The notes under the pieces are model-generated. The model was not told where the DNA came from. It saw only the letters and a program-made list of their open reading frames with translations, and made no database searches. DNA of 63,081 nt from Hassallia byssoidea VB512170 (lineage in GTDB: Bacteria > Cyanobacteriota > Cyanobacteriia > Cyanobacteriales > Nostocaceae), in assembly GCF_000817785.2 (NCBI RefSeq), contig NZ_JTCM02000030.1:1-63081 (forward strand). The letters run 5' to 3'. Shown piece by piece: positions 1,992 to 58,436 of the stretch. The position numbers were made by a program, and so were the translations under genes. Position 1 is the first letter of the stretch. Every line of letters begins with the position of its first letter.

Positions 1992-3605
1992 ATGCAAGAA
2001 GGAAGCTTTACTTGGAGTCGCCTAGAAAAACAATATCGCGTGGTTGAAAAAAGGATTGATTGGGGATGGGTGATAGTGCTGTTGTTGGCAGCAGTGTTAC
2101 TCTTTAGCATAAATCTTGGGGAATTGCCACTGCGAGATTGGGATGAAGGTACTGTGGCACAAGTTGCCCGTGAAATTTGGCGTGCGCCGGCTGGTTCAAT
2201 GCGTTGGCTTTACCCGATGCTAGGAGGTCAACCATATCACAATAAGCCACCGCTGATGCATTTGCTGATTGCTTGGACTTATTCGCTGTTGGGCGTAAAT
2301 GAGTGGACTACGCGCTTACCAGGAGCAATGTTAACAGCTATTTCTGTACCTTTGTTGTATTGCATTGGTAGAGAGATATTTCGCCAACGTTGGGCAGCGA
2401 TTTACAGTGCTTTGATTTATCTAACGATGTTGCCGGTAGTGCGTCATGGACGCTTGGCGATGTTAGATGGTGCGGTAATCTGCTTTTTTATGGTGATGAT
2501 GTTGTGTGTATTGCGATCGCGTCGCGATTTGCGATACTGTCTGGGCATTGGCATCGGTTTTGGCTTAATTTGTCTAACTAAAGGCATGTTAGGCATATTA
2601 TTAGGAGCTTTAGCATTTTTATTTCTTCTGTGGGATACCCCACGACTTCTCACCAGTTGGTATATGTGGATAGCCATCATCATTGGCAGTATACCGATAG
2701 TTTTCTGGTCTGGTTCCCAGTGGATACATTATGGTGAAAGTTTCGCCCGCATTGGTATTATGGGTCAATCCCTCAACCGCATCAACACAAATGTTGAGAA
2801 TCATTCCGGACCACCCTGGTATTATCTGTTAGAAATTTTCAAGTACGCATGGCCCTGGCTGATGTTTTTGCCGCAAGCGTTACGCTTAACTTGGGAAAAT
2901 CGCAATCTTAGCTGGGCAAAACTCGTACTGGTGTGGAGTGCTGTTTACCTGCTAGCGATTTCCCTGATGGGAACCAAACTACCCTGGTACGTCTTTCCGA
3001 TTTACCCCAGTTTCGCTTTAGCTTTTGGTGCGCTGCTGGCAGAGACAGAAAATCCATCTTTACAGTCATCTTATCCCCGCGCTTGGGTAGCTAGTTTTTC
3101 ATTACTAGCTGTAGTAGCTTCTGCTGGCAGCATTTATTACAGCTGGGGCACAACAGGTAAATCTGACTTACAGATGATTTTTGCTGCTGTAGCTGTAACT
3201 ATGGCTTTAGCCGCTATTTTAGCAGAGCGAGGTGACGGACAATTCCTGAAAATTTTGTTTTGGGGAAGTTATATTTCGCTGCTGCTGTTGATGAAATCAA
3301 ACTATTGGGTTTGGGAATTAGAAGAAGCCTATCCTGTTAAACCAGTCGCTGTGATGATTCAGCGGGCAAAACCCACAGTCAGAAAGATTTATACATCTTT
3401 TCCATATCATCGCCCGTCATTGAATTTTTATAGCGATCGCAACATTATTCCCGCTTCTGATGCTGAACTAAAATATTATTGGCAATACAACGAGCAACCC
3501 TACTTTTTACTCGATGCATCTGCTCTGAAAAATCTCCATTTAGAATCAGTGAAGCGAATTGACGAAACCGAAGGTTTCACACTGATTACAAAAGACACAT
3601 ATTGA
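1992..3605 (+). CDS. GT39-type (ArnT/PMT-like) membrane glycosyltransferase
   Basis: A 537-residue polytopic membrane protein of the GT-C fold. After a cytoplasmic N-terminus and a first TM segment (about 25-42), the first periplasmic loop carries RDWDEG (48-53), whose acidic pair is the catalytic signature of GT39/ArnT enzymes, followed by HNKPP (83-87). At least eight further hydrophobic segments and a soluble C-terminal domain follow. Family members transfer a sugar from a polyprenyl-phosphate donor to lipid or protein acceptors on the outer face of the membrane; the acceptor cannot be deduced here. The gene stands alone, divergent from the unknown membrane protein, and ends in a heptamer-array hairpin shared with the convergent zinc-ribbon gene. 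Confidence 0.88.
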   Translation: MQEGSFTWSRLEKQYRVVEKRIDWGWVIVLLLAAVLLFSINLGELPLRDWDEGTVAQVAREIWRAPAGSMRWLYPMLGGQPYHNKPPLMHLLIAWTYSLLGVNEWTTRLPGAMLTAISVPLLYCIGREIFRQRWAAIYSALIYLTMLPVVRHGRLAMLDGAVICFFMVMMLCVLRSRRDLRYCLGIGIGFGLICLTKGMLGILLGALAFLFLLWDTPRLLTSWYMWIAIIIGSIPIVFWSGSQWIHYGESFARIGIMGQSLNRINTNVENHSGPPWYYLLEIFKYAWPWLMFLPQALRLTWENRNLSWAKLVLVWSAVYLLAISLMGTKLPWYVFPIYPSFALAFGALLAETENPSLQSSYPRAWVASFSLLAVVASAGSIYYSWGTTGKSDLQMIFAAVAVTMALAAILAERGDGQFLKILFWGSYISLLLLMKSNYWVWELEEAYPVKPVAVMIQRAKPTVRKIYTSFPYHRPSLNFYSDRNIIPASDAELKYYWQYNEQPYFLLDASALKNLHLESVKRIDETEGFTLITKDTY

Positions 3606-3768
3606 AAGGGGGAAGGGGGAAGGGGGAAGGGGTAAAGGGGAAAGGGGAAAGGTATGGAGTTATTTAAAATTCACACCGATGTTTCAAATCACTTCTTCCC
3701 CTTTGCCCTTTGCCCTTTGCCCTTTCCCCCTTTCCCTTTCCCCTTTCCCCTTTCCCCCTCTTCAAATC
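3606..3768. repeat. Complementary heptamer arrays forming a long hairpin between convergent genes
   Basis: The left arm is GGGGAAG/GGGGAAA repeated, the right arm is CCCTTTG/CCCCTTT repeated, and about 60 bp of AT-rich sequence separates them. The arms are mutually complementary, so RNA from either side can fold. It sits between the stop codons of two convergent genes, so a bidirectional terminator or insulator role is plausible but inferred. Confidence 0.8.
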
Positions 3769-3769
3769 C

Positions 3770-4141
3770 CTATTCCCTATTCTCCACCTTCTCCGTTCCT
3801 GGAAGACTAGGGACTTCGGAAGTCTTTTGCTGAGTGACACCAATCATCCCGAAAAGAATAGCACTTACTACAGCTAAAGCTAGCAAAGGACGCTTGAGGA
3901 CGATAAAATCTCTTATAATCCTAGCTAAAGGACTGCTTTGACGACGTAGCGATGATGAGATTATCATCTGTCTCAAGATAAACGGATCGCGGACGTAGTG
4001 ACCGCTTTGAGAAACTACTAGGCGTTCCTGGCAATACGGACAGCTAAATAAGCCAATGCACGTCTTAACTGGCTTTGGCGTTGCATTTCTCCGGCAAATT
4101 GGGCAAGTAACATAATGATTATCAAAGGTGTGTGTATTCAT
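3770..4141 (-). CDS. Small zinc-ribbon protein with a C-terminal membrane segment
   Basis: The 123-residue product opens with a treble-clef or zinc-ribbon pattern: CPIC at about residues 13-16 and CPYC at about 34-37, spaced as for one bound zinc. A basic middle region rich in Ser and Arg follows, then one hydrophobic segment (ALAVVSAILFGMIGV, about 93-107) and a short polar tail. This suggests a cytoplasmic zinc-binding head tethered to a membrane. I do not recognise a named family. The stop codon lies at the edge of the convergent heptamer hairpin. The ATG at 4141 is the only reasonable start. Confidence 0.65.
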   Translation of the reverse strand: MNTHTFDNHYVTCPICRRNATPKPVKTCIGLFSCPYCQERLVVSQSGHYVRDPFILRQMIISSSLRRQSSPLARIIRDFIVLKRPLLALAVVSAILFGMIGVTQQKTSEVPSLPGTEKVENRE

Positions 4142-4774
4142 CTACCTTGTCCGCTTAGTCCACTCACTCGCTCTATAACAATAACTATATTCAATTTCCG
4201 AACACCCTCGTAAATTACTGAGTGTGGTTTGACCCTTCGGGTCAGCAAGTTTCCCATCTCCCAAAGGGAGACGCAAGCGAACGACGCAAAGCGCCAAGAC
4301 GGGAACTTGCTGACATAAGTCATGAATCACACATTTAGTATTTCTACGACAAGCGGGATGCTTATCTTACTAAGCATCACTTAAGTTCCGAAGTTTTGAG
4401 CAGTTGCCGCTCGACACTTCTTTTTGCAACACGAGTGTAGCTACATTTGGCGTAGTTATGACTCCTAGTTGCTTTTGCTGTGGGTGTGCGTCTGTGAGCT
4501 TACAGGTACTACATTTTCGCGCTCAGAGAATAGAGTCTGCGCTAAAAAAGCATTCCCTTAGCTCACTATTGACCATTAATTCTCTCCCATTCAACCATTA
4601 TCCCTATAAAAGTATGAAGTAGTGGCAAGTTTTTACGAAAGCTTTGTAAAGCAAGCAAAAAAACTAAATAATTAACACACAAACTCTTTACTTGTCTAGA
4701 TGCTAAATCATGCTTCACAATAAGAATTAACACATAAAAATTTAATTTTTTTCTTACATTTACCCCGCCTATCA
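4142..4774. other. Intergenic region upstream of the ClC gene, no gene seen
   Basis: The short ORFs here have no protein-like composition. The region holds a hairpin mini-element (4241-4314, listed separately) and an AT-rich stretch from about 4620 to 4774 that probably carries the ClC promoter. No convincing -35/-10 pair or regulator site could be assigned. Confidence 0.6.
4241..4314. repeat. 74-bp hairpin mini-element with 14-15 bp inverted ends
   Basis: Starts GTCAGCAAGTTTCCC and ends GGGAACTTGCTGAC, which are reverse complements apart from one T. The interior contains CTCCCAAAGGGAGACGC, the palindromic core also seen at 18023 and 52577. It is therefore probably a composite of a small inverted-repeat element and a small dispersed repeat. 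Confidence 0.7.
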
Positions 4775-10559: not shown

Positions 10560-12446
10560 CTAACTATTTTTAACTGTATTAATTGTTTCCAATAATTGCT
10601 TTGCGGTGTAAGGTTTGGATAAGAAAGCTTTGATTCCTAAATCGTATGCTGCATTCATTTTATCGCTGGTAGCAAGTCCGCTGATGACAATAATCTTGAC
10701 GTTAGGGTTAATTTTGTACAAGGTGCGAATGGTTGTGATGCCATCCATTGAGGGCATTAGCATATCTGTTAAGACTATAGATATTTTATCGCGATATTCT
10801 GCATAAAGAGCGATCGCTTCTATGCCATCACTAGCGGTTATCGCTTTGTAGTTGTAGGCTTCTAGGGATGTTTTGGTAATCTCTCGAATCGATGGTTCAT
10901 CATCGACGATCAAAACCAACTCTCCGCTGCCATGTGGCAATTCTAGTTCTTTTTCTTCGGGGGATTCTGCTGTTTCTTGGGCAGGTAAATATATTTCAAA
11001 TTTGCTGCCTTTGCCTACCTCGCTGTATACATTGATGAAACCACCGTGACTTTTGACTATACCAAGTACTGTGGAAAGTCCTAAACCTGTGCCTTTACCG
11101 AGTTCTTTAGTGGTAAAAAATGGCTCAAAAATCCGGTCTAATACTTCATGTGTAATGCCAATTCCTGTATCAGCAACTGTAGCGACGATATAAGAACCAA
11201 TTTTCGCGTCAAGATGCATTTTAGCATAATGCTCATCTACGATGAAATTTTCGGCAGAGATTGTCAAAATTCCGCCATTGGGCATAGCATCACGAGCATT
11301 AACACACAAATTCATTAATACTTGATGCAATTGGGTAGCATCTCCAGAAACAGTCCAAAGATTTCGTGAGGTTTCGCAGTCAACTTCTATTGATTTAGGA
11401 AATGTTTCTTTAATAACTTGGCGAATTTCTAATATTAAGTGCTTTAATTGTAAGATTGTACGATCGCCTTCGACACCGCGAGTAAAAGATAATACTTGCT
11501 TAACTAAATTCGCTCCACGTTTGGCGTTGGTTACTAATATCGGCAGCAGTCGCTTACTTCGCGCATCATGCAGCTGTGTCTCCAATAGCTGTGCGGTCAT
11601 TAAAATCGGTGCGAGGACGTTGTTTAGGTCGTGGGCAATACCGCTTGCTAAAGTGCCAATGCTTTCTAATCGCTGGGCGCGTAAAAATTGCGCTTCCAGT
11701 TGTTTTTTCTGTGTAATGTCAGTGTTAACAACTAGAATAGATTGTGATTTTTTATCAAATGGTACTAATGTCCAGCGGCTTTCGACAATGATTTCTTTGT
11801 CGTATTTTGTTGTTTGATATAACTCTCCTTCCCAAGAGCCATTTTTCATCAGAATGTTGAGGGCTTCTTGCAGTTGCAGTGCATGTTTTGTCTGCCAAAT
11901 ATCTTGGGTTCTTTTGCCGATCGCCTCATCTTTTCTACAACCATATAAACGTTCGGCTGCTTTGTTCCAAAATAAAATTTTATTGTCTAAATCGCGCACA
12001 TAAATCGCATCGGTAGCGACATCAAGTAAAGCAGCTTGTTCGCGAATTTTCTGTTCTGTTTGTTTGCGCTCAATCGCATAGCGAATCGAACGCTCTAACA
12101 AAGGTGCTGACAGCTGACTTTTTTCTAAATAGTCTGCTGCACCTGCTTTCATTGCCTCGATATCTATTTCTCTATCTCCTTTACCGGTAAGTAAAATTAT
12201 CGGAGCGGTGGAACCATTAGCGATCGCTTCGCTCAATAACTCCAGTCCATCCCCCTCACCCAAACGATAATCAACTAGATAGATATCGTGGCGATTTTGA
12301 GCGATCGCTTCTCTAGCTTTTGCATAACTACTGACCCATTCGAGTTCGCTACCAGTTACCTGAAATTCATCGAACCAATCACGAGTCAAAATATAATCAT
12401 CTTCGTCATCGTCAACTAGAAGAACTTTGATTGGACTGTTGTTCAT
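10560..12446 (-). CDS. Hybrid histidine kinase: REC - PAS - HisKA/HATPase - REC
   Basis: A 628-residue soluble signalling protein. An N-terminal receiver (1-120, VLLVDDDEDD and phospho-site Asp in YLVDYRLGEGDG) is followed by a PAS domain (about 135-250, RDLDNKILFWNKAAERLYG), a dimerisation helix with the phospho-accepting His in [13 protein letters not shown], an ATPase domain ([15 protein letters not shown]-box, [20 protein letters not shown]) and a C-terminal receiver (about 505-628, LTDMLMPSMDG). No membrane segment. The 35-bp overlap with the upstream response regulator gene implies translational coupling. It is a close paralogue of the kinase at 17106-19544. The stimulus is unknown; the REC-first layout suggests input from another kinase. 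Confidence 0.92.
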   Translation of the reverse strand: MNNSPIKVLLVDDDEDDYILTRDWFDEFQVTGSELEWVSSYAKAREAIAQNRHDIYLVDYRLGEGDGLELLSEAIANGSTAPIILLTGKGDREIDIEAMKAGAADYLEKSQLSAPLLERSIRYAIERKQTEQKIREQAALLDVATDAIYVRDLDNKILFWNKAAERLYGCRKDEAIGKRTQDIWQTKHALQLQEALNILMKNGSWEGELYQTTKYDKEIIVESRWTLVPFDKKSQSILVVNTDITQKKQLEAQFLRAQRLESIGTLASGIAHDLNNVLAPILMTAQLLETQLHDARSKRLLPILVTNAKRGANLVKQVLSFTRGVEGDRTILQLKHLILEIRQVIKETFPKSIEVDCETSRNLWTVSGDATQLHQVLMNLCVNARDAMPNGGILTISAENFIVDEHYAKMHLDAKIGSYIVATVADTGIGITHEVLDRIFEPFFTTKELGKGTGLGLSTVLGIVKSHGGFINVYSEVGKGSKFEIYLPAQETAESPEEKELELPHGSGELVLIVDDEPSIREITKTSLEAYNYKAITASDGIEAIALYAEYRDKISIVLTDMLMPSMDGITTIRTLYKINPNVKIIVISGLATSDKMNAAYDLGIKAFLSKPYTAKQLLETINTVKNS

Positions 12447-16450: not shown

Positions 16451-16572
16451 GTGACTCGTTGGCAGTGTTTGACTGGGAATGTTTCACTACTGGCTGCTGT
16501 CTCCAAATTTAACACGAGCTTCAGACTCGGTAGTTACACTACAAGGCAGAGTCTTGTAACGAGAAAAAGGAG

Positions 16573-16824
16573 AAGTTTCGAGTTCGGAACATCAAGTTTC
16601 GAGTTCGGAACACGAAGTTTCGAGTTCGGAACATCAACTTTCGAGTTCTGAACACGAAGTTTCGAGTTCGGAACACGAAGTTTCGAGTTCGGAACACGAA
16701 GTTTCGAGTTCGGAACATCAACTTTCGAGTTCTGAACACGAAGTTTCGAGTTCGGAACATCAAGTTTCGAGTTCGGAACATCAAGTTTCGAGTTCGGAAC
16801 ATCAAGTTTCGAGTTTTGAGGCTC
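16573..16824. repeat. 21-bp tandem array R1, 12 contiguous units
   Basis: The unit is AAG followed by TTTCGAGTTCGGAACAYS (21 bp in all), eleven near-identical copies and a decayed twelfth. Within each unit TTCGAGTTC and GGAACACGAA form a 19-nt near-perfect dyad with one mismatch. Variants (ATC/ACG endings, AACTTTC starts) recur in a higher-order order, showing duplication of multi-unit blocks. There is no spacer, so it is not CRISPR. The open frames across it are heptapeptide translations of the repeat and have no start context. Confidence 0.9.
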
Positions 16825-17105: not shown

Positions 17106-19544
17106 TCAAATTGCCCCATGCCCAAGTACTTGATGTAAAGTGTGTAATAATTCTTGTGTGGTATAGGGTTTTGGCAAAAAGGCTGCGTGTTTATATGTTT
17201 TATTTAATAAAACTTGCTCGCTTATTGGCAATCCACTGACTGCAATAATAGGCAGTAGCGGATTCATTTTTTTCAAAGTGTTAATGGTGGTGGCTCCATC
17301 CATGTTGGGCATCATCATATCAATAATTGCGGCTTTAATTTCGTTTTTCTGCTGGGCGTAGAGTGCGATCGCCTCAATGCCATCACTTGCAGTAATTGCT
17401 TTGTAGTTATATTTTTCTAAAGAGGTTGTGGTAATCTCGCGAATCGAGGCTTCGTCATCGACAATCAAAATTAATTCTTTCTGTCCGGTGAGTATTTCTT
17501 GATTTTCTTCTTGCCGGATTGCGTCTGTATTCACCGCTGGCAAATAAACTTGAAATTTTGTACCAATGGCTTTCGCACTTGATGTGGTGATAAAGCCTCC
17601 GTGACCTTTAACAATGCCCATTACTGTTGAAAGTCCTAAACCTGTGCCTTTACCAAACTCTTTTGTGGTGAAAAATGGCTCAAAAATTCTCTCTAAGGTT
17701 TCTTGACTAATGCCAATTCCTGTATCTGCAACGCTCAAGAGTATATATGAACCAACTTTCGCATCAAGTTGCATTCTGGCAAAGTTTTCATCAATGAAAA
17801 TATTCTTTGCAGAAATGTTTAATGTGCCGCCATTGGGCATAGCATCACGAGCATTGACACACAAATTCATCAATACCTGATGTATTTGGGTGCTATCGCC
17901 ACAAATTTGCCATAAGTCTGGCTGAATTTCTTTCTCAACTGTAATTGATTTAGGAAATGTTTGCTCGATAATTTGCTTCATTTCTAAAATATGATATTTT
18001 AGCTGAAGCACAGTGCGATCGCGCAGCGTCTCCTTTGGAGAATCGCCTTCAATTCCCCGCGCAAAATAAAGCACTTGTTTAACCAAACTTGCACCGCGTT
18101 TGGCGTTGTTTTCTACTATCGATATAACTGCATGACTGCGCTCATCCGAAACTTTTGCTTTTAACAGTGGCACTGACATTAAAATCGGTGACAGCATATT
18201 ATTTAAATCATGAGCAATACCACTAGCAAGTGTGCCGATACTCTCCATCCGCTGGGCACGTAAAAATTGCGCCTCTATTTGTTTTTTCTGTGTTATGTCA
18301 GTATCTACAACCAAAATGGATTTAGCTTTTTGATGCTCATCGCGAACTAAAGTCCAACGACTTTCAACAATGATTTGTTTACCTGATTTGGTATGCTTTT
18401 GTAACTCTCCCTGCCAAGTTCCATTTGACAAAACAGCCTGAGAAATTTCTTGTTGCAGCAAAGGTTTATTATCTAATTGATTAATATTCCCGCACATAGC
18501 TTCTTCTGCTTTCCAGCCATAAAGCTTTTCGGCGGTTTTGTTCCATAATAAAATTTTGTTGGATAAATCTCGCACAACAATTGCATCTGTAGAGATATCA
18601 AGTAATGCTGCTTGCTCGCGGATTTGCTGTTCTGCTTGTTTGCGTTCTGTGATATCCTCAACTACATAAGCAAATCTTTGGGGGCTATCGCAACATACAG
18701 CAATTGAAGAGACAGTTGCTCTAAGCCATTTTTTAGCATCCCCATCGTGAAGATATTCAAAGCTGACAGGCGATCGCGTTTCTTCTGCTTGACGCAAGTG
18801 ATTAATCCACTCACGTACATACTTTTGAGGTACACCCATATTGCTCGCAAAGCGATTTTTTATCGCTTCGGGAGTGACTCCAAAAAATTTGGCGCTAGCG
18901 GCATTATCAGAAATATGTTTGATGTCATCATACCTTAGCTCCACAGTTCCCATCATCATTGGTGCGCTGTCGAAAAAGCTGCGGAGGGTAGATTCACTTT
19001 CCTGTAGTGCTTCTTTTGCTTGCTTGTAGTCAGTTTTAATGCTTGCTAATTCAGTTAAATTTCGCCGGGTTTCTAATTGTCTAACTATCAGACGGCTAAT
19101 AGTTTTAAGTGCTTCTAACTGTTCGTCATTAATTTGGCTTGGTTGGCTATCAACTATACACACAGTCCCTATCACTTCTCCACCTGGTGTTATCAAAGGT
19201 ACACCAGCGTAAAATCTGACGTAGGGTTCACTGGTGACTACAGGATCTGAAGCATATCGTTCATCAGCCAAGGTGTCCGGAATAACCAAAGTTTCGCCTG
19301 TTTCGATGCAAAACGGACAAAACCCAATATCTCTAGGCATTTGTTGTACACCCAGCCCGACTTTAGCTTTGAACCAGTGACGCTTGTTGTCTGTGAAATT
19401 AATTAAAGCGATCGCTGTGCCACAAATTTGCGCGGCTAAAAATACCAGATCGTCAAATACCTGTTCTGGTGGAGTGTCGAGAATTTGATATTGACGCAGA
19501 GCCTCAAGCCTTCTTGCTTCGTTTTTAACAGTTAAAGTATTCAT
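17106..19544 (-). CDS. Hybrid histidine kinase: GAF - PAS - PAS - HisKA/HATPase - REC
   Basis: An 812-residue soluble kinase. It begins with a GAF domain (about 10-165, [17 protein letters not shown] and [13 protein letters not shown]), a type common in cyanobacterial and proteobacterial sensors. Then a PAS unit (about 185-300), a second PAS (about 315-430, [20 protein letters not shown]), HisKA ([17 protein letters not shown]), HATPase ([34 protein letters not shown]) and a receiver ([11 protein letters not shown]). From the second PAS onward it is a close paralogue of the 10560-12446 kinase. It differs by eight extra residues (SPKETLRD) between GD and RT near the kinase core, encoded by a palindromic mini-insertion at a HIP1 site. 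Solo transcription is likely. Confidence 0.92.
18018..18046. repeat. In-frame small dispersed repeat inside the kinase gene, with 5-bp duplication
   Basis: On the plus strand ATCGC (18018-18022), then GCAGCGTCTCCTTTGGAGA (18023-18041), then ATCGC again (18042-18046). Removing 24 nt restores GGCGATCGC as in the paralogue and its protein sequence GDRT. Related cores lie at 52577 and, inverted, at 4257. Confidence 0.85.
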
Positions 19545-20260
19545 AAAATTTTCCTAAACTACGCTTAATTACAACTTGCCCTTGTCTTATTTATGGTTGT
19601 TGCTCGCTTCAACAAGCACCGAAGCTGTAATCATGGCTTGAGAATGCTGCAAACCTCAAATTTTTCCTTCCAGCCATACACATCTGCCAAAAACTTGCCT
19701 TGCGCTTAATTTGCCCCCATAGCTAGTAGGGCGATCGCACTGTGCTTAAGAGCTTCAAACAAGTCACTATCCGGATATCTAAAACAGTCAGCAGCTCAGT
19801 TCGTCACTGTCCCTATAGTAATATGTCTTTAGGAGGATGACAGTTTTATTTGGAAAATTCCGCAAATGCACCTAATAGATACATCAATTACGTATTTATT
19901 GGCATTTTTTTTGAGAAAAAGGCTGTTAAAACTAGAGTTTTAGGTTGAACTACTTAGTATTTATAGCGTAAATGAAGTAGTAAGGGGAGAGGGGGGAGAG
20001 GGGAGGGGGGAGACAAGGGAGACAAGGGAGACAAGGGAGAGGGGGGAGACAAGGGAGACAAGGGAGAGGGGGGAGACAAGGGAGAGGGGGGAGACAAGGG
20101 AGACAAGGTAGCTATTTCCTCCTTGTCCTCCTTGTCCTCCTTGTCCTCCTTGTCCTCCTTGTCCTCCTTGTCCCCCTAGTCCCCCTAGTCCCCCTTGTCC
20201 CCCCTGTCTGTTTAAATTAAGCAGCAGGTAAGCAAAACTTAAACTTAAGAGTAGATACTG
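19545..20260. other. Long intergenic region upstream of moaE, with a heptamer/nonamer array
   Basis: No gene was identified in 19545-19980; it is AT-rich near 19850-19970 and probably contains the kinase promoter on the minus side. From 19981 to 20212 lies an array: GGGAGACAA units on the left, CTCCTTGTC units on the right, complementary and able to fold. The open frames across the array (Gly-Gln-Gly-like) are translation of the repeat. Confidence 0.65.
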
Positions 20261-22083: not shown

Positions 22084-22554
22084 TAGTTCATAGGTGGTGG
22101 ATAGTGGATAGTGGATGGTGGATAGTGGGTGGTGGATAGTGGATAGTGGGTGGTGGATGGTGGGTGGTGGATGGTGGGTGGTGGATAGTGGGTGGTGGGT
22201 GGTGGATGGTGGATAGTGGATGGTGGATAGTGGATAGTGGATAGTGGGTGGTGGATAGGAGTAATTTTTGACAACCATCAACCAACAACCAACAACCATC
22301 AACCAACAACCAACAACCATCAACCAACAACCAACAACCATCAACCAACAACCAACAACCAACAACCATCAACCATCAAGCATTAAGCATCAACCATCAA
22401 GCATTAAGCATCAACGATCAAACATTAACCACCAACCATCAAACATTAACCACCAACCATCAAACATTAACCACCAACCATCAAACATTAACCACCAACC
22501 ATCAAACATTAACCATCAACCATCAAGCATTAACCAACAACTATCAACTAACCA
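22084..22554. repeat. Extended GTGGATA and CCATCAA/CCAACAA heptamer arrays
   Basis: 22090-22258: about 24 units of GTGGATA/GTGGGTG/GTGGATG. 22270-22550: about 38 units of CAACCAT, CAACCAA, CATTAAC. Both have period 7, so all frames are open for long stretches, but the predicted peptides are low-complexity. The array extends to within two bases of the stop codon of the FAD oxidoreductase gene. Confidence 0.9.
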
Positions 22555-34362: not shown

Positions 34363-34551
34363 CAATGCCATTGCATCGGGTGACAATGCCATTGCATCGG
34401 GTGACAATGCCATTGCATCGGGTGACAATGCCATTGCATCGGGTGACAATGCCATTGCATCGAGTGACAATGCCATTGCATCGGGTGACAATGCCATTGC
34501 ATCGGGTGACAATGCCATTGCATCGGGTGACAACGCCATTGCATCGACCTG
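34363..34551. repeat. 21-bp tandem array R2, 9 contiguous units
   Basis: Each unit starts CAATGCCATTG and continues CATCGGGTGA. CAATG-C-CATTG is a perfect 11-nt palindrome. The nine copies differ by one or two bases, the last being more decayed. It lies between the riboswitch promoter region and the end of the HD gene, so it is transcribed from neither. No spacer sequence. Confidence 0.9.
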
Positions 34552-43689: not shown

Positions 43690-43922
43690 ATGGATGGGGG
43701 AGGGGGAGTGGGGAGTGGGGAGTGGGGAGTGGGGGATGGGGAGAGGGGGGGGAGGGGGAGTGGGAGAGGGGGAGATGGGGGAGACAAGGGAGACAAGGGA
43801 GAGGGGGAGGACAGGAAAGAAATTCCTCCTTGTCCTCCTTGTCCTCCTTGTCCTCCTTGTCCTCCTTGTCCTCCTTGTCTCCTTGTCTCCTTGTCCCCTT
43901 GTCCCCTTGTCTCCCACACCAC
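43690..43922. repeat. GGGGAGT/GGGAGACAA and CCTCCTTGT arrays
   Basis: A purine arm (GGGGAGT, then GGGAGACAA) and a pyrimidine arm (CTCCTTGTC, six exact nonamers) face each other. It lies between ado and aar. The nonamer unit CTCCTTGTC recurs at 9990, 20110 and elsewhere. Confidence 0.85.
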
Positions 43923-45639: not shown

Positions 45640-46224
45640 GCTCTTAAGGCAGGCAAGATGTTCGCATGGAACACCCTAGTACTCGACCAACCCAAAAATG
45701 ACGGGTGAAGGCAGGCTTTCTGTAGCAGGGGAAGCAGGGGAAGCAGGGGAAGCGGGGGGAGAAAATAACTTGATTTTCTTACCATAAACCCCGCAAAGTT
45801 GCTGTGGCGGACTCCTAGAATTAATGAGATAGGCAAAGTTTAGTACATTGCGTAACATCGAGGCGTTATAAGATAACATCGAGGCGTTATAAGATAACAT
45901 CGCGGCGTTATAAGATAACATCGCGGCGTTATAAGATAACATCGCGGCGTTATAAGATAACATCGCGGCGTTATAAGATAACATCGAGGCGTTATAAGAT
46001 AACATCGCGGCGTTATAAGATAACATCGCGGCGTTATAAGATAACATCGGCATGTATTGACATTGCAGGGTTGTCCCCATCTCCCTTGTGTCCCTCTAGA
46101 TGCTATTATCTGAAGGCAACGCGCGTATCAATCCCCTTTGAGAATCTCAATCAAGTTAACTCTCATGGTGGAGTTTTTCAGAATTCAACAACGCTAAACT
46201 CAGAATCTGTGACAATCAGGAAAT
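45640..46224. other. Repeat-rich intergenic region between two plus-strand genes
   Basis: 45640-45850 has no gene; 45724-45766 is a GAAGCAGGG array. The 21-bp array R3 follows (listed separately), then 46070-46095 with CTCCCTTGTG units, then 100 bp that probably holds the promoter of the small gene at 46225. The ORFs reading across the array are translations of the repeat. Confidence 0.6.
45854..46042. repeat. 21-bp tandem array R3, 9 contiguous units
   Basis: Each unit is AACATCGCGGCGTTATAAG plus AT; copies 1, 2 and 7 have GAGG for GCGG. ATAAC and GTTAT arms with CG in the centre form an 18-nt near-palindrome (one mismatch, one G-T). A seven-base tenth partial follows. No spacer. Confidence 0.9.
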
Positions 46225-46593: not shown

Positions 46594-47439
46594 TTATCGC
46601 AATTGTTCTATCTCAGATTCCGACAAACCCGTTAACTGGACTACCTGTTGTATACCCATTTTTTGCTGCAACAAATTTACAGCTATCTGCCTGATTATTG
46701 ATTCTGCTTGTTCGGCACGTTGATGTTCTTGTTCAGCACGTTGATGTTCTTGTTCAGCACGTTGACGTTCTTGTTCGGCACGTTGACGTTCTTGTTCGGC
46801 ACGTTGATGTTCTAAGTCGGCTATTTCCTCGGCATTTGGCAGCAATTGTCCATCCAAAGTTGCCCAGCGCAGCCAAGTGGCATCAATGCCTTTGTATATT
46901 CCTTGCCAGCGCACCAACGCTAAACCTAATGATTGACTCACAAGCTGATTTTGGGCATTTGCTGGAATGGGTTGATAAACTCCGCGATTGAGAAAAAATC
47001 CAGCACAATCATCAGCATTAAAGGGGTCAAACCAGAAATATTCAGAGACACGTAACAGATTTTGATAAATTAGCTTTTTCTCGTGTTTGTCTTGGGTAGC
47101 GGTGCTGTCAGATAGCAATTCAATTACTACGTCAGGTCCTTTTCCTTCTTCCCAGACAACCCAACAAAGACGTTCTTTTTTCGGTACTCCCAATACTACA
47201 AAGAAATCGGGTCCTCGGAAATCTTGGTTTTTGACTTGTGCCAAGCTGTAGTAGACAAACATATTGCCCCCGACATACCCATCATCACGACTCGCTAACC
47301 AAAGAAATAAGGTATCAATAAGCATGTCCATTTGGACTTTGTGCCGTTGAGTTTCCATTGGGATACCGTCGTCGCTTATCAGTTCTGCTTGCGTTGGGGG
47401 CAGTGCCACGCTAGATTCAGCTAAGATAATTTCTGACAT
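46594..47439 (-). CDS. Uma2-family (DUF820) protein with a C-terminal heptad repeat
   Basis: A 281-residue protein with the PD-(D/E)XK-like Uma2 core: RGPDFFVVLG and GPDVVIELLSDST with the acidic and basic catalytic-like residues, LRVSEYFWFDP downstream. Uma2/DUF820 proteins are numerous in cyanobacteria and are presumed endonucleases of unknown substrate. Unusually, residues about 209-243 are five 7-residue repeats (ERQRAEQ type), encoded by a 21-bp tandem DNA repeat (46700-46804). The tail then returns to conserved sequence (MGIQQVVQLTGLSESEIEQL). Confidence 0.85.
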   Translation of the reverse strand: MSEIILAESSVALPPTQAELISDDGIPMETQRHKVQMDMLIDTLFLWLASRDDGYVGGNMFVYYSLAQVKNQDFRGPDFFVVLGVPKKERLCWVVWEEGKGPDVVIELLSDSTATQDKHEKKLIYQNLLRVSEYFWFDPFNADDCAGFFLNRGVYQPIPANAQNQLVSQSLGLALVRWQGIYKGIDATWLRWATLDGQLLPNAEEIADLEHQRAEQERQRAEQERQRAEQEHQRAEQEHQRAEQAESIIRQIAVNLLQQKMGIQQVVQLTGLSESEIEQLR

Positions 47440-52473: not shown

Positions 52474-52632
52474 ACCAAGTTGCGTTCATCTCTTTCTCTG
52501 CGCTCTCTGTGCCTCTGTGAGTCCACTTGCCGTCTTGGCGGTCTCCGTCACGATGGCAAAGTGGCGAACCCGTTCGCGCAGCGTCTCCCTTTGGGAGAAG
52601 GGCGGTTTTATTCTCCGTAAACGCAACTTGGC
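52474..52632. mobile_element. MITE with CCAAGTTGCGTT ends and a nested small repeat
   Basis: Left ACCAAGTTGCGTT, right AACGCAACTTGG: 12-bp inverted ends. The interior includes a CTCTGCGCTCTCTGTGCC stretch and the palindromic core GCAGCGTCTCCC/TTTGGGAGA (52577-52597), the same as the in-gene insertion at 18023. No coding capacity. It lies in the recN/ABC1-kinase divergent gap. Confidence 0.75.
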
Positions 52633-57972: not shown

Positions 57973-58138
57973 TTGATTATTGATATTACGTTGTTTGAGC
58001 CATTCAACATGTCCTAAACTTTGTGGCTACTGCTATAAAATTATAAATAACGATGCGATCGCACAAGCTTTTTATGTTGACTTTTCAGTAATTATATGTT
58101 TATACACCAGAGTCCGGAGTAGAGACGCGAGGAATATC

Positions 58139-58432
58139 GCGTCTGTAACGATGTTCGTCGCGTCTGTAACGGTGTTCGTCGCGTCTGTAACGGTGTTCGT
58201 CGTGCCTGTAACGGTGTTCGTTGCGTCTGTAGCGATGTTCGTCGTGCCTGTAACGGTGTTCGTCGCGTCTGTAGCGATGTTCCTCGTGTCTGTAGCGATG
58301 TTCTTCGTGCCTGTAACGATGTTCCTCGTGCCTGTAGCGATGTTCCTCGTGTCTGTAGCGATGTTCCTCGTGTCTGTAGCGATGTTCCTCGTGTCTGTAG
58401 CGATGTTCCTCTTGCCTGTAACGATGTTCCTC
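58139..58432. repeat. 21-bp tandem array R4, 14 contiguous units
   Basis: Unit of 21 bp: GCGTCTGTAACGATGTTCG plus TC, with variants (GTGTCTGTAGC, GTGCCTGTAAC, TTCCTC). Fourteen copies in exact register. It lies directly against the remnant start of a hicA copy (58437), so the minus-strand frame reads HicA residues, then a heptapeptide repeat. Confidence 0.9.
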
Positions 58433-58436
58433 GCGA

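What the first reader, a model, noticed from the sequence alone, without database searches (positions are those of the whole stretch)
18018..18046. Palindromic mini-insertion adds eight residues to a histidine kinase at a HIP1 site
The paralogue at 10560-12446 reads EGDRT where this kinase reads EGD, eight extra residues (SPKETLRD), then RT. At DNA level 24 nt are added inside GCGATCGC; 19 nt of palindromic core are flanked by ATCGC twice. The core is also found in the intergenic MITE at 52577 and, inverted, in the hairpin element at 4257. A multiple of three kept the frame. Small dispersed repeats are known in Nostoc-type genomes, so the element class is not new; a mobile palindrome landing in a HIP1 octamer inside a kinase gene, with a clean empty site in the paralogue, is a precise case.
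Basis: partly seen in the sequence, partly recalled or inferred. Interest (0 to 1): 0.72.

Follow-up and report, generated by a model that had tools for sequence, protein, structure and literature searches.

The report
Twin-hairpin repeat inserted in kinase gene
A 24-letter mobile DNA repeat that can fold into two tiny hairpins has landed exactly in the middle of a very common eight-letter cyanobacterial motif inside a sensor-kinase gene, adding eight amino acids without breaking the gene; this kind of insertion was already known, but here it is seen in many genes and cyanobacteria, with the pairing of its first hairpin kept while the letters change.

Summary
The kinase at 17106-19544(-) carries exactly 24 extra nt (18019-18042) in the middle of a HIP1 site, GCGA^TCGC; three same-genus relatives have the intact HIP1. 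The insert is an SDR5-like small dispersed repeat. Precise SDR5 insertion into HIP1 is already in print (PMC4390886, citing Elhai 2008, not held here).

GCGA precedes 67 of 82 copies followed by HIP1, against 190 of 4559 overall. Nine other genes have uninserted homologues. (2) The unit reads T-[5-bp hairpin]-[CGC nnn GCG]-A. A search leaving hairpin 1 free still gave perfect 5-bp hairpins in 92 of 150 listed family matches and 53 of 94 listed matches outside it, in 23 stems. (3) The "ATCGC duplication" is better read as the element's own GCGA end meeting HIP1. The mechanism, a folded single strand joined 3' of GCGA, is inferred (about 35%).

The parts
18019..18042 (-). 24-nt inserted element, TTCTCCAAAGGAGACGCTGCGCGA on the minus strand; adds eight residues (SPKETLRD)
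   Evidence: the three same-genus orthologues read lack it
18043..18046 (-). left half of the split HIP1 (GCGA on the minus strand)
   Evidence: intact GCGATCGC in orthologues
18015..18018 (-). right half of the split HIP1 (TCGC on the minus strand); with the element's terminal GCGA it makes a HIP1 at 18015-18022
18029..18041 (-). hairpin 1 of the element: TCTCC AAA GGAGA (5-bp stem, 3-nt loop)
   Evidence: fold; differing but paired stems
18020..18028 (-). hairpin 2 of the element: CGC TGC GCG (3-bp stem, 3-nt loop)
   Evidence: fold; its stem was fixed in the main searches, so its conservation was not tested freely
17106..19544 (-). host gene: 812-aa GAF-PAS-HisKA-HATPase_c-receiver hybrid histidine kinase; insert between HisKA (437-497) and HATPase_c (549-670)
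   Evidence: model puts the insert in a low-confidence linker
10560..12446 (-). paralogous hybrid histidine kinase without the insert (EGDRT; GAT CGT, so HIP1 not intact)
52581..52598 (+). related copy with a 6-bp stem (GCGTCTCCCTTTGGGAGA)
4257..4274 (-). related copy, inverted, same 6-bp stem

Best explanation
The insert is an SDR5-like small dispersed repeat: a 24-nt unit, T-[5-bp hairpin, 3-nt loop]-[CGC nnn GCG]-A, that enters HIP1 sites exactly at GCGA^TCGC. Shown: presence, exact length, empty sites, HIP1 specificity, pairing of the first hairpin kept with changing sequence. Inferred: the unit moves as a folded single strand joined 3' of GCGA (its own last four bases are also GCGA), without target duplication, and rebuilds a HIP1 on one side so that further units can be added in tandem. 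In this kinase it is probably tolerated because it falls in the flexible linker between the phospho-acceptor helices and the ATP-binding domain and keeps the frame; most likely it has no adaptive role (not tested). The confidence below is for the identity and the HIP1 insertion; for the folded-strand mechanism I give about 0.35.
For: Empty sites: 28 of 30 kinase homologues, intact HIP1 in 10 of the 14 read at DNA level. Same event in other genes: of 10 coding sites tried, 9 had uninserted homologues, 42 rows, 28 with an intact HIP1 at the very place, including valine-tRNA ligase. Family scan of 217 genomes: 4559 elements, 190 with left GCGA, 82 followed by HIP1, 67 with both; odds ratio 158. 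58 of 67 inserts are 24 nt; the matching 3-nt loop is found in 20 of 76 own-genome copies. Structure: the 32-nt site folds as a 5-bp outer stem with two hairpins. With hairpin 1 left free, 92 of 150 listed rows form 5 of 5 pairs (50 of 105 distinct 13-mers; shuffled arms mean 6.6, max 16 in 2000), and 53 of 94 listed rows outside the family (35 of 72 distinct; mean 3.3, max 10). Duplication not needed: among 29 own-genome copies other than the kinase one, 26 carry GCGA at the right end and 28 have CT on the left. Tandem units: two in G189, six in an FAD-oxidase-like gene of G024. Linker: model residues 73-84 have pLDDT below 50, between a helix ending at 71 and a strand at 87; the insert is 78-85.
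Against: Copies are not independent (shared descent; some of the 67 are orthologous), so the odds ratio overstates certainty. The fold of the window copy alone is only modestly better than shuffles (z -1.8). Hairpin 2 and the HIP1 halves were fixed in the main patterns. In 1.25 Mb of the own genome (60 stretches from 11 contigs plus the window, not chosen at random) spacing 24 is the commonest for pairs with HIP1 on one side (22, against 0-20 at the other spacings from 1 to 80), but only 4 of the 22 are twin hairpins. 14 of 42 uninserted rows have no intact HIP1, so there HIP1 was gained, lost or absent. The SDR5 consensus could not be checked. No mobilising enzyme was sought.
Confidence: 0.9

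Rival explanations
1. Conventional transposition of a 19-nt core that duplicates a 5-bp target (GCGAT).
For: GCGAT does flank the 19-nt core on both sides, and 24 = 19 + 5.
Against: Among 29 other own-genome copies, 26 have GCGA at the right end while the left neighbour is CT in 28, so GCGA looks element-owned; the 19 nt have no terminal inverted repeats.
Confidence: 0.2
2. No dedicated enzyme: replication template switching or repair of a break at HIP1, using the 4-nt GCGA identity between element end and HIP1 as microhomology. (The mechanisms listed overlap, so these odds are not meant to sum to one.)
For: GCGA is shared by element end and target; PMC4390886 itself suggests directed cutting at HIP1 as a partial explanation of SDR5 insertion.
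Against: Units of one length (58 of 67) and hairpin pairing kept with changing sequence suggest a recognised structure rather than random copying.
Confidence: 0.35
3. Gene conversion or homologous recombination from another copy that already sits in a HIP1, spreading element plus flanks.
For: In G123 several of the eight HIP1 copies share longer left flanks, so part of that genome's set spreads as larger repeats.
Against: Most other sites that are not evident homologues of each other show no shared flanks by eye, and homology of 4-8 nt is too short for ordinary RecA recombination (general knowledge).
Confidence: 0.15
4. Not an insertion: an old in-frame sequence lost in relatives, or a local duplication.
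For: L046 has another 9-aa insert at the same place, so this linker tolerates length change.
Against: 28 of 30 homologues lack it and the 24 nt match a repeat pattern found 76 times in the genome.
Confidence: 0.02

Closest known systems
SDR5, a small dispersed repeat of cyanobacteria (Elhai et al. 2008, Genome Res 18:1484; not held, known here through PMC4390886, passages and section 3.3 read)
   Same: Repeat module precisely inserted inside HIP1; the stated position between the third and fourth HIP1 nucleotides is one of the equivalent placements of this insert.
   Different: Sequence identity with the SDR5 consensus could not be tested. Whether the many-stem set found here is covered by the 2008 paper is unknown.
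REP sequences and REPINs with RAYT/TnpA-REP (PMC3116915, PMC3733652, PMC6006769: passages read)
   Same: Short hairpins, dispersed, non-autonomous, families differ in sequence but share a fold; single-strand processing next to a 4-nt foot.
   Different: No GTAG/GTGG or CGTC foot here (GCGA instead), two abutting mini-hairpins, a fixed octamer as target, often inside genes.
IS200/IS605 termini (PMC6006769: passages read; the absence of target duplication is recalled)
   Same: Subterminal hairpins, insertion next to a short target.
   Different: 24 nt in all, no coding capacity; no transposase linked.
MITEs such as Nezha (PMC3733652: passages read)
   Same: Non-coding, dispersed.
   Different: MITEs are given there as 70-300 bp with 15-30 bp terminal inverted repeats; this unit is 24 nt without them.

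Membership tests
SDR5 | Precise insertion between nucleotides 3 and 4 of HIP1 (as stated in PMC4390886) | tested here: met
   Insert splits GCGATCGC; the GCG|ATCGC placement is one of the equivalent ones
SDR5 | Match to the published SDR5 consensus sequence | not testable with these tools
   Elhai 2008 not held; a text search for GGAGACGC with cyanobacter listed 8 papers, none on repeats by title or abstract start
SDR5 | Very small size (21-27 nt, recalled) | tested here: met
   24 nt here; 24-27 nt in 67 of 67 HIP1-split copies (the search pattern allowed some range of length)
SDR5 | Dispersed, multi-copy, mobile by comparison of strains | tested here: met
   76 loosely related copies in the genome; empty sites in relatives
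REP/REPIN | GTAG/GTGG (or CGTC) tetranucleotide at the foot of the hairpin | tested here: not met
   The hairpin is preceded by GCGAT
REP/REPIN | Extragenic location | tested here: not met
   This copy lies in a gene; 37 of 67 HIP1-split copies lie in open frames of 150 codons or more
REP/REPIN | Cognate RAYT/TnpA-REP gene | not tested
   No transposase search was run
MITE | Length 70-300 bp with 15-30 bp terminal inverted repeats | tested here: not met
   24 nt, no terminal inverted repeats
MITE | Target-site duplication (recalled) | tested here: inconclusive
   GCGAT flanks the core, but other copies suggest GCGA is element-owned
IS200/IS605-type unit | Mobilised by a Y1 HUH transposase as single-stranded DNA | not testable with these tools
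   Needs an assay; the anatomy is only compatible

The most novel reading that the evidence does not exclude
HIP1 sites across cyanobacteria are landing sites for a structure-defined class of 24-nt mobile units: twin mini-hairpins in which the pairing of the first is kept while its stem sequence is free (at least 23 stems seen), so that the mobilising machinery reads shape plus GCGA rather than sequence. SDR5 would be one sequence family of this class, and the class would be a continuing source of stereotyped 8-residue inserts (such as RFSxGDAT, DSPxETLR, SRSVSxGE) and of tandem 8-residue repeats in proteins.
Probability: 0.4. Interest if true: 0.75.

Novelty: new member of a known kind. Interest (0 to 1): 0.5.

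Why it matters
HIP1 is highly over-represented in cyanobacteria (77 copies in this window against about 0.5 expected from base composition) and its relation to the methyltransferases that recognise it is described as a mystery (PMC4390886, section 3.3). A repeat that enters HIP1 exactly in its middle, with empty sites in sister species, gives a direct handle on what cuts or joins DNA there. The kept pairing of a hairpin whose sequence is free argues that a folded strand is the working form, which can be tested. It also shows a simple route by which ordinary enzymes gain fixed 8-residue inserts in frame.

Tried and rejected
Tried and rejected. (a) Target-site duplication: not needed (30 distinct copies from the 32 loci fetched of 76 places; one of the 30 is the kinase copy). 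(b) Frame selection as the sole cause of the 24-nt length: 22 of 30 copies outside long open frames are also 24 nt, though the four 25- and 26-nt copies all lie outside long frames, so selection may act too. (c) L046's 9-aa insert as a second copy: its pattern matched only itself among 12 genomes with up to 1 mismatch. (d) A spacing scan of 1.25 Mb gave its highest count at 24 but a weak one. (e) A freer test of hairpin 2 (GCGAT N22 ATCGC in all held DNA, itself enriched for elements) gave 124 twin hairpins with CGC/GCG and no other perfect twin hairpin; hairpin 2's 3' arm is also the HIP1 half, so this is expected. A mismatch-tolerant scan does show some double changes in hairpin 2 (CAC..GTG, GGC..GCC), in listed rows whose right half reads ACGC. 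(f) Paper searches gave only PMC4390886 on SDR5 at HIP1; I judged the rest from listings or passages and saw nothing on several stems or covariation. The 2008 paper is not held, so I do not claim that the multi-stem set is unpublished.

Left undone: a search for a linked HUH/Y1 gene; the fold model was not compared with structure libraries.

Full report
What is there. On the minus strand the 812-aa kinase at 17106-19544 reads [13 protein letters not shown]. The eight residues come from 24 nt inside a HIP1 octamer: GCGA-[TTCTCCAAAGGAGACGCTGCGCGA]-TCGC, window 18015-18046. Of 30 homologous loci, 28 lack the residues, one is the window copy and one (L046) has a different 9-aa insert. I read 14 of the 28 at DNA level: 10 keep an intact HIP1, including the three same-genus orthologues. 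Among the genomes seen the insert is confined to this one and is therefore probably recent.

A repeat family. The exact 16-nt core has 3 copies in the genome. The wider pattern GCGTCTCC-N1-6-GGAGA has 76, with none in the reversed control. The window copies at 4257 and 52581 belong to the wider family but have a longer stem. The two other exact-core copies sit in AT-rich repetitive sequence and end GCGCGAAC, not GCGATCGC; I did not test whether they are coding.

HIP1 specificity. In 217 genomes of the family I counted elements TTCTCC-N1-6-GGAGACGC (4559), those preceded by GCGA (190), those followed by HIP1 (82) and those with both (67). GCGA precedes 67 of the 82 followed by HIP1 and 123 of the 4477 others (odds ratio 158). 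Related copies make any p-value too small, but 44 of 217 genomes and 17 of 56 genera hold such sites. Of the 67, 58 are 24 nt, 5 are 27, 3 are 26 and 1 is 25. I fetched the 15 copies followed by HIP1 but without a left GCGA: the ten of 24 or 27 nt differ from GCGA at one or two positions, the five of 25 or 26 nt at two or three. That fits aged HIP1 insertions for the former.

The same event in other genes. For ten coding sites I searched 22 genomes with the flanking protein stretches and read the DNA. Nine sites had uninserted homologues: 42 rows, 28 of them with an intact HIP1 exactly at the junction and 14 without. The genes include valine-tRNA ligase and, by a recalled motif only, an acyl-activating enzyme. 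Both orientations of the element occur.

Length, frame and selection. Of the 67 copies, 37 lie in open frames of at least 150 codons with 25 or more on each side: 36 of 24 nt, 1 of 27. Outside such frames 22 of 30 are also 24 nt, so 24 is intrinsic; the four 25- and 26-nt copies are all outside. The reading frame matters: of 850 coding HIP1 sites in the own-genome sample, 448 are in the Ala-Ile-Ala frame, which holds 3 of the 37 coding inserts; the Arg-Ser frame has 133 of 850 but 20 of 37. Inserts are also somewhat rarer in long frames (37 of 67) than HIP1 itself (850 of 1219). The HIP1 background comes from one genome and the inserts from many, so this is a rough test.

Structure. The 24 nt have no spare bases: T, a 5-bp hairpin with a 3-nt loop, a CGC nnn GCG hairpin, A; the HIP1 halves plus T and A close a 5-bp outer stem. 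One fold alone is only modestly better than shuffles (z -1.8). The stronger test left the 13 nt of hairpin 1 unspecified (GCGAT N13 CGC N3 GCGATCGC). In the family, 92 of 150 listed matches form all five pairs and 120 form at least four; among 105 distinct 13-mers, 50 are perfect against a mean of 6.6 and a maximum of 16 when arms are shuffled. Outside the family, 53 of 94 listed matches are perfect (35 of 72 distinct; shuffled mean 3.3, maximum 10). Both lists are partial. Together they hold 23 different perfect stems, 7 of them in both (such as TCTCC/GGAGA, ACTCC/GGAGT, GCTCC/GGAGC, TCTCG/CGAGA). The pairing is kept while the letters change. Hairpin 2 and the HIP1 halves were fixed by the pattern and are not tested by this. 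A named-genome scan with the TCTCC stem reported 85 stretches (80 listed), in Nostoc, Fischerella, Spirulina, Moorena, Leptolyngbya, Oscillatoria, Prochloron and others. In the phylum sample, 55 of 386 genomes matched the freer pattern.

Other stems in genes. Among 20 fetched sites with other stems, several lie in long open frames. By NCBIfam match, below the whole-protein cut-off for these partial stretches, they include NAD synthase, a bacterial polynucleotide kinase-phosphatase and an ABC ATPase. In NAD synthase the three solved relatives shown have a 12-residue gap around the inserted place. An FAD-oxidase-like gene (best matches HpnE and zeta-carotene desaturase, both far below cut-off) of G024 has six tandem 8-residue units. 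Tandem units fit re-insertion at, or duplication of, the HIP1 that each insertion rebuilds.

Where it sits in the kinase. Pfam places HisKA at 437-497 and HATPase_c at 549-670; the insert follows residue 501. A model of residues 425-685 built on 21 sequences (mean pLDDT 75.6) has the insert (model 78-85) mostly in a low-confidence stretch (73-84) between the second long helix (44-71) and a strand (87-89). A flexible linker would explain tolerance; the residues invariant among the 21 sequences are by definition present in the window protein.

How it likely works. Shown: exact unit, exact target, no extra duplication required, kept pairing of hairpin 1. Inferred: a folded single strand is the moving form, joined 3' of GCGA. 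The element's own last four bases are GCGA, which recalls single-strand transposons and REP sequences, where a tetranucleotide at the foot of a hairpin guides cleavage (PMC6006769, passages; details recalled). Template switching with GCGA as microhomology is the main rival and I give it equal weight. No enzyme was sought.

Known or new. [quoted passage not shown] That placement is equivalent to the one here, so this case is a new member of a known kind. Whether the multi-stem class is described in the 2008 paper I could not check.

Noticed in passing
L046 (genome G010, C1:2970325-2971827), homologue of the window kinase: An unrelated 9-aa insert at exactly the same place as the window insert; its DNA pattern matched only itself among 12 genomes.
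   Followed up: partly
L364 (genome G024, C1:1658660-1660000): Six tandem copies of an 8-residue unit (DTPQESLR, the first DTPRESLR) in an FAD-oxidase-like gene; the last unit is an ACTCC-stem twin hairpin in a HIP1, the others are judged from the protein only.
   Followed up: partly
L184 (genome G189) and L094 (genome G002): Tandem 24-nt units: two with different loops in G189, three 8-residue units by protein in G002.
   Followed up: partly
window 3604-3777, 20008-20208, 22095-22548, 43695-43911 and many others: Dense heptamer and 9-mer short tandem repeat arrays, of the kind called STRR in heterocystous cyanobacteria (name recalled); 81 overlapping rows of all periods.
   Followed up: no
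window 34363-34546, 45853-46049, 46707-46813, 58137-58433, 16572-16815: Tandem arrays of period 21 (a multiple of three), about 5 to 14 copies, 89-98% matches; coding status not checked.
   Followed up: no
   Followed up: no
window, whole: 77 HIP1 octamers against about 0.5 expected from base composition.
   Followed up: no
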